NCBI RefSeq assembly: GCF_000754805.1
Contig: NZ_KN150731.1
Location: 3,397,886 to 3,461,885 of the forward strand
Reading direction: 5' to 3'
DNA: 64,000 bases
From: Yersinia frederiksenii ATCC 33641
GTDB lineage: Bacteria > Pseudomonadota > Gammaproteobacteria > Enterobacterales > Enterobacteriaceae
Every line of letters begins with the position of its first letter. Positions within the stretch are counted from its first letter, which is position 1. The notes under the pieces were generated by a model. It was not told where the DNA came from and made no database searches. It was given only the letters and a program-made list of their open reading frames with translations. The translations under genes were made by a program, and so were the position numbers. Of this stretch, positions 63,848-64,000 are shown piece after piece.

Positions 63848-64000
63848 ATGAGCAAGACGCTAACGGAAATAGCCCAGCAGCTAAAAGAGACTGATAAGAA
63901 GGTACAGTTGATCTATGCCTTTAATGGTACGGGTAAAACACGCCTGTCTCGTGAATTTAAGGAGCTGGTTGCGCCTAAAAATGCTGGCGATGAGCAGGCT
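63848..64000 (+). CDS. prrC: Probable PrrC tRNA-Lys anticodon nuclease, 3' part beyond the window
   Basis: First 51 codons of a gene starting one base after the hsdS stop. It begins MSKTLTEIAQQLK and has a Walker A motif in YAFNGTGKTRLSREF (residues about 23-37). As I recall, E. coli PrrC starts with KTLSEIAQQL and has the same YAFNGTGKTRLSREF. PrrC is an ABC-type NTPase fused to an anticodon nuclease that cuts tRNA-Lys when the T4 Stp peptide disables the type IC enzyme. It lies between hsdS and hsdR, exactly the position here. The nuclease domain is not visible, so another AAA-type gene is possible. Confidence 0.8.
   Translation, partial: MSKTLTEIAQQLKETDKKVQLIYAFNGTGKTRLSREFKELVAPKNAGDEQA

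What the first reader, a model, noticed from the sequence alone, without database searches (positions are those of the whole stretch)
63848..64000. PrrC-like anticodon nuclease starting inside a type IC RM operon
Seen: an ORF begins one base after hsdS, opens with KTLTEIAQQL and carries YAFNGTGKTRLSREF. Known: the E. coli prr locus is hsdM-hsdS-prrC-hsdR, where PrrC is kept silent by the restriction enzyme and cleaves tRNA-Lys when a phage peptide inhibits restriction. Inference: this Yersinia island carries the same two-layer abortive-infection module. Only the ATPase start is visible.
Basis: partly seen in the sequence, partly recalled or inferred. Interest (0 to 1): 0.75.

Follow-up and report, generated by a model that had tools for sequence, protein, structure and literature searches.

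The report
PrrC anticodon nuclease in restriction operon
The gene cut off by the window's right edge is a complete copy of PrrC, a known bacterial self-shutdown enzyme thought to cut the lysine tRNA when a phage disables the restriction system it sits in; it is an ordinary member of a known family.

Summary
I followed the gene past the window edge in the window's own genome. It is an intact 389-codon ORF that starts one base after the hsdS stop codon and overlaps hsdR by 8 bases: hsdM-hsdS-prrC-hsdR. It matches the PADLOC PrrC model over residues 3-387 (E = 8.9e-147) and is 67-69% identical to an E. coli protein that RefSeq names anticodon nuclease. The catalytic triad Arg320-Glu324-His356 of E. 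coli PrrC is present as R313, E317, H349, and the tRNA-Lys-recognition peptide is kept at 10 of 11 positions. HsdM and HsdR belong to the EcoR124 (type IC) family. The host carries tRNA-Lys(UUU) with the expected stem-loop at four places. Of 80 relatives fetched, 72 have hsdM and hsdS upstream and hsdR downstream. Cleavage of tRNA-Lys, silencing by the restriction enzyme and activation by an anti-restriction peptide are inferred from the E. coli system, not shown here. Verdict: a new member of a known kind.

The parts
58917..59001 (+). tRNA-Leu (anticodon CAA), beside which the island lies
   Evidence: ARAGORN. The lptG-tRNA-Leu stretch matches in 25 of 25 genomes of the genus, own included; the gene name lptG is recalled.
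59200..60456 (+). tyrosine-type integrase next to the tRNA
   Evidence: Pfam Arm-DNA-bind_3, Phage_int_M, Phage_integrase
61004..62584 (+). hsdM, type IC methyltransferase subunit (526 aa)
   Evidence: TIGR00497 hsdM 650 bits; EcoR124 M chain 7bst_D E = 8.6e-286; 83% identical to HsdM of an E. coli prrC operon
62581..63846 (+). hsdS, specificity subunit (421 aa)
   Evidence: Pfam Methylase_S; EcoR124 S chain E = 2.4e-66; 39-41% identical to HsdS of four other operons, so target recognition domains probably differ
63128..63177 (+). 12-bp tandem repeat (4.2 copies) coding TAEL repeats in the HsdS central spacer
   Evidence: TRF; three consecutive TAEL units in the protein
63848..64000 (+). start of prrC. 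The whole gene is L002:5734-6903 (would be window coordinates 63848-65017, 389 aa), most of it outside the window; hsdR follows wholly outside the window at L002:6896-10000 (would be 65010-68114, 1034 aa)
   Evidence: prrC. hsdR; EcoR124 HsdR 2w00_A 1843 bits; 81% identical to HsdR of an E. coli prrC operon

Best explanation
It is prrC, the anticodon-nuclease gene of a type IC restriction-modification operon (hsdM-hsdS-prrC-hsdR) in a chromosomal island beside tRNA-Leu(CAA). Its N-terminal two thirds is an ABC-type NTPase; its C-terminal third carries the nuclease triad. Most likely PrrC is held silent by the EcoR124-like enzyme encoded around it. When a phage peptide or another anti-restriction factor disables that enzyme, PrrC cuts tRNA-Lys 5' of the wobble base and stops translation, ending the infection at the cell's expense. 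Shown here: gene, operon, motifs, substrate tRNA present in the host. Inferred from E. coli PrrC: latency, trigger, cleavage.
For: PADLOC PrrC E = 8.9e-147 over residues 3-387. 67-69% identity to the 396-aa E. coli protein that RefSeq calls anticodon nuclease, even over both domains (N 68.2%, C 65.9%). Triad R313/E317/H349: Arg in 85 of 86 aligned rows, Glu and His in 86 of 86, query included (the one Cys row is L048). Walker A, signature, Walker B/D-loop and switch His align. Recognition peptide 284-294 identical at 10 of 11 positions. Same junctions as E. coli: 1-base gap after hsdS, 8-base overlap with hsdR. 72 of 80 relatives have hsdM and hsdS upstream and hsdR downstream. Four tRNA-Lys(UUU) places with the searched 17-base stem-loop. 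A PrrC with only 35% identity to E. coli PrrC also targets tRNA-Lys and blocks phages T1 and T7 (PMC11555353, passages seen).
Against: No biochemical data. Pfam matches only the general AAA_13 model above its cut-off, AAA_21 below it, and NCBIfam has no match. No solved structure matches by sequence and no structure could be predicted. One residue next to the ABC signature (SKGEQ) departs from the other 85 rows, which have E there; its effect is unknown. PrrC substrates may vary in the family (PMC3014915 section 33). The distant relative L088 (33% identical) sits in a different gene order, hsdS-gene-hsdM, with no hsdR annotated in the stretch seen.
Confidence: 0.93

Rival explanations
1. A PrrC whose substrate is a tRNA other than tRNA-Lys, or whose trigger is not an anti-restriction peptide but DNA damage or nucleotide imbalance.
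For: The review states that the recognition sequence and possibly the substrate vary among PrrC proteins, and that dTTP also activates (PMC3014915 sections 32-33: passages and section read). Members with an altered recognition region exist: L087, and G006 of the same genus.
Against: This copy keeps the E. coli recognition peptide GDSNKSFSYH, and the host tRNA-Lys stem-loop matches the searched one.
Confidence: 0.12
2. An RloC-type anticodon nuclease (zinc hook, DNA-damage response) rather than PrrC.
For: RloC shares the ABC motifs and the triad (PMC2610378 passages).
Against: 389 aa, no cysteine at all, so no zinc hook; it lies inside a type IC operon, where RloC rarely does.
Confidence: 0.01
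3. An unrelated ABC/RecF-like ATPase or a decayed prrC remnant in the operon.
For: Pfam names only a general AAA domain.
Against: Near full-length match, intact frame, triad kept.
Confidence: 0.01

Closest known systems
E. coli PrrC / EcoprrI (prr locus)
   Same: Gene order hsdM-hsdS-prrC-hsdR, junction geometry, domain layout, triad, recognition peptide, EcoR124-like HsdM and HsdR
   Different: The stretch before Walker A is a net 16 residues shorter (N26 here, N42 in E. coli). It has 15 extra residues after position 126. SKGEQ instead of SKGEE. HsdS only 41% identical to that of L084, so the DNA target is probably different.
Closest relatives aligned: L004 (Gammaproteobacteria MAG), L005 and L006 (Legionella contigs)
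   Same: 87-88% identical, 389-392 aa, same insert
   Different: Different hosts; suggests horizontal transfer rather than vertical descent (inference)
PrrC170 of Klebsiella quasipneumoniae (PMC11555353, passages seen)
   Same: PrrC in a type I operon; shown to target tRNA-Lys and block phages T1 and T7
   Different: 35% identity to E. coli PrrC; the paper lists its four genes as HsdR, HsdS, PrrC, HsdM
RloC (PMC2610378, passages seen)
   Same: ABC NTPase plus the R-x3-E...H triad
   Different: Zinc-hook coiled-coil insert, wobble-base excision, rarely in R-M operons

Membership tests
PrrC | Catalytic triad Arg320-Glu324-His356 | tested here: met
   R313, E317, H349; definition seen in PMC2610378
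PrrC | ABC-type NTPase motifs in the N-terminal two thirds | tested here: met
   NGTGKT, SKGEQ, DDPVSSLD and the switch His aligned to E. coli
PrrC | Gene inside a type IC operon, hsdM-hsdS-prrC-hsdR | tested here: met
PrrC | tRNA-recognition region 284-294 of E. coli PrrC | tested here: met
   10 of 11 residues identical, the exception being position 285
PrrC | 15-residue PrrC box | tested here: inconclusive
   No passage I saw gives its letters. The 15-residue block YYNAFTEDLFYWDND is strongly conserved in 86 rows and may be it; this is a guess.
PrrC | Cleaves tRNA-Lys 5' of the wobble base | not testable with these tools
   Only the presence of the substrate tRNA was tested
PrrC | Silenced by the R-M enzyme, activated by Stp/dTTP with GTP | not testable with these tools
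   Known for E. coli (PMC3014915)
RloC | Zinc-hook/coiled-coil insert in the ATPase domain | tested here: not met
   389 aa and no cysteine; no large insert against PrrC
Type IC R-M (EcoR124 family) | HsdM/HsdR close to EcoR124, TAEL repeats in HsdS | tested here: met

The most novel reading that the evidence does not exclude
PrrC of this kind guards type IC enzymes against a whole class of Stp-like phage micropeptides, not only those of T4-like phages. Unannotated 25-30-codon ORFs resembling Stp occur in Drexlerviridae, Guernseyvirinae and a Salmonella phage with small genomes, one of them near a polynucleotide kinase/phosphatase gene. If they inhibit type IC restriction and wake PrrC, the E. 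coli-T4 story becomes a general sensor system that could also cover this island.
Probability: 0.35. Interest if true: 0.5.

Novelty: new member of a known kind. Interest (0 to 1): 0.25.

Why it matters
It points to a second-line, self-sacrificing phage defence in this island and adds an intact member in a genus where only 2 of 25 genomes searched (this one and G006) have a near full-length relative. The E. coli prr arrangement is kept down to the gene junctions here and in four annotated E. coli and Klebsiella operons (the divergent L087 keeps only the first junction). It also gives two PrrC types within one genus (recognition region GDSNKSFSYH versus the altered one in G006) for comparing substrate choice.

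Tried and rejected
RloC and a generic ATPase were considered and rejected (see rivals). An exchanged, non-PrrC C-terminal domain was suspected in L087 because only its first two thirds matched at DNA level. Alignment showed the triad is kept in L087 and L088, so both remain PrrC-type with an altered recognition region. A search for the other end of the island (repeat of the tRNA-Leu tail) in the 60 kb taken found no convincing copy, only a 3-mismatch 16-mer. The 41.7-kb second contig was not identified: its first 5 kb had no megablast match among plasmids. No PrrC relative was found in 50,697 phage records at E 1e-5. Phage T1 was checked for a Stp-like ORF over record positions 1-16000 and 36000-48836 only; nothing convincing was found. 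Whether phages of this genus carry Stp was not settled: the organism list is capped and the one Yersinia-phage accession tried was absent. Papers: PrrC with Yersinia gave 3 papers, seen as a listing. Searches on Stp gave none, none and 16 papers seen as a listing, so I make no claim that the Stp-like ORFs are unreported.

Full report
Observation. In the window, hsdM (61004-62584), hsdS (62581-63846) and the first 51 codons of a third gene (from 63848) lie head to tail on the + strand. The window is G000:C1:3397886-3461885, so I took C1:3456000-3495999 of the same contig, which overlaps the window end. The third gene is an intact 389-codon ORF, L002:5734-6903, followed by hsdR, whose likely ATG lies 8 bases inside it. 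The automatic ORF list starts hsdR 11 codons earlier. I prefer the later ATG because the annotated E. coli operon has the same 8-base overlap and the same one-base gap after hsdS. The annotated operons L085, L086 and L089 show the same two junctions; L087 has the first but not the overlap.

What it is. PADLOC's PrrC model matches residues 3-387 with E = 8.9e-147. Pfam gives AAA_13 above its cut-off and AAA_21 below, NCBIfam nothing, and no chain in the PDB matches by sequence. In 5,426 complete E. coli genomes, 21 have a DNA match and 6 cover at least 80% of the gene; five of these six are annotated anticodon nuclease and one hypothetical protein. The annotated E. coli protein (396 aa, L084) is 67-69% identical, evenly over the NTPase and nuclease parts. 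In L084, residues 222, 287, 320, 324 and 356 are D, D, R, E and H, as the literature numbers them for E. coli PrrC, so L084 is a fair yardstick.

Residues. In an alignment of 86 proteins (the query, 79 of the 80 loci, and six annotated records), Arg320 is R in 85, Glu324 is E in 86 and His356 is H in 86. The query has R313, E317 and H349. The exception at Arg320 is L048. Walker A, signature, Walker B/D-loop and the switch histidine align. [quoted passage not shown] The residue after SKGE is Q in the query and E in the other 85 rows. These relatives are the best-scoring ones, so the counts lean towards conservation.

Operon and family. HsdR and HsdM match the EcoR124 subunits of the PDB with 1843 and 951 bits and are 81% and 83% identical to those of the E. 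coli prrC operon; HsdS is only 41% identical. The HsdS spacer holds 12-bp repeats coding three consecutive TAEL units. In EcoR124-type enzymes this repeat number sets the spacing of the DNA target; that is recalled, while the N6 and N7 targets of EcoR124I and II are listed in PMC12707154 (passage). Of the 80 relatives kept (the best of 458), 72 have hsdM and hsdS upstream and hsdR downstream. Six of the other eight lack hsdM, one of them hsdS too, because the contig begins there; L055 and L060 show no hsdR, but in both another ORF follows prrC and the contig ends. Of 79 relatives (L007 left out), hsdR lies within 60 bases of prrC, or overlaps it, in 58 and 61-300 bases away in 2. In 17 it is 398-1488 bases away, mostly behind an extra ORF. 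Five of these extra ORFs were scanned: RhuM, Bro-N, YhcG-type nuclease, Fic, and AAA_14/DUF4143. Passages of PMC3710099 already report RhuM-like genes beside PrrC-like and R-M genes. The window's own operon has no such extra gene.

Host and substrate. The searched 17-base tRNA-Lys anticodon stem-loop occurs at four places in the genome, each inside a tRNA-Lys(TTT) gene. The island lies beside tRNA-Leu(CAA), after a stretch present in 25 of 25 genomes of the genus, with a phage-type integrase first. I read 5.7-20 kb around this junction in four relatives. DNA like this integrase follows the tRNA in L126 and L129, and in L127 with its middle missing; L128 shares only its first part and an 84-base piece. 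None of the four matches the hsd or prrC stretch. Within the genus, 2 of 25 genomes have a near full-length PrrC relative: this one, and G006 with a 58% identical protein, also between hsdS and hsdR but with an altered recognition region. A third (G008) has only a weak 91-residue match.

How it works. By E. coli precedent (PMC3014915, passages and sections 33-34; PMC2610378, passages; PMC12707154, passages), PrrC is latent in complex with the type IC enzyme. It is activated when phage peptide Stp inhibits that enzyme, activation involves GTP hydrolysis and dTTP, and it cleaves tRNA-Lys upstream of the wobble base. T4 repairs the cut with polynucleotide kinase and RNA ligase 1. A far more distant PrrC170 (35% identity to E. 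coli PrrC) was shown to target tRNA-Lys and to block T1 and T7 (PMC11555353, passages), so tRNA-Lys as the target here is likely. None of these steps was tested for this gene.

A side lead. A search with T4 Stp found matches in 680 of 50,697 phage records at E up to 0.1; 12 of the 60 rows shown, taken at even steps, are from genomes of 42-51 kb, far smaller than T4. I read five of them. Each has an in-frame ORF of 25-30 codons that starts at the aligned position (GTG in SA30RD) or, in FP, six codons before it, with a conserved N-terminal half; none of the five is annotated in its record. In Henu7 it lies about 0.5 kb upstream of an annotated polynucleotide kinase/phosphatase. Three of the five (SA30RD, Henu7, LPST49) have E between 0.02 and 0.05, weak on their own; length, start position and placement between genes make them convincing to me. 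Whether they act like Stp is untested.

Verdict.

Noticed in passing
L132:1201-1278, L133:1201-1281, L134:1201-1281, L135:1201-1281, L136:1183-1275: Unannotated Stp-like micro-ORFs (25-30 codons) in five small-genome phages outside the T4 group; in Henu7 about 0.5 kb upstream of a polynucleotide kinase/phosphatase gene.
   Followed up: partly
L138:3389-3538 versus L133:1201-1281: In phage T1 the place that holds the Stp-like ORF in Tunavirus SA30RD carries an unrelated 49-codon ORF (ST69) behind similar upstream DNA.
   Followed up: no
L010, L012, L013, L016, L037, L051, L063 and others, between prrC and hsdR: In 17 of 79 relatives hsdR is 398-1488 bases from prrC, mostly behind an extra gene; five scanned are RhuM, Bro-N, YhcG-type nuclease, Fic and AAA_14/DUF4143. 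L055 and L060 also have an ORF there. It looks like a slot for varied extra genes.
   Followed up: partly
L003:24-2839: An McrB-McrC type modification-dependent restriction pair lies about 10 kb beyond hsdR; its NCBIfam scores are below the curated cut-offs.
   Followed up: partly
L003:11537-19132: A 2531-codon filamentous-haemagglutinin type gene with TPS secretion, VENN pre-toxin and C-terminal Ntox33 domains, with a transporter-like ORF beside it (by recall).
   Followed up: partly
L091:1450-2817: A divergent PrrC between hsdS and hsdR in another genome of the genus (G006), recognition region altered (NDHPFSYH), Arg/Glu/His pattern kept by eye.
   Followed up: partly
L007: In Serratia symbiotica a close copy (91% in the best segment) is broken: only two short open pieces match.
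   Followed up: no
L048: Relative in a Desulfovibrionaceae contig with Cys in place of the catalytic Arg; possibly inactive.
   Followed up: no
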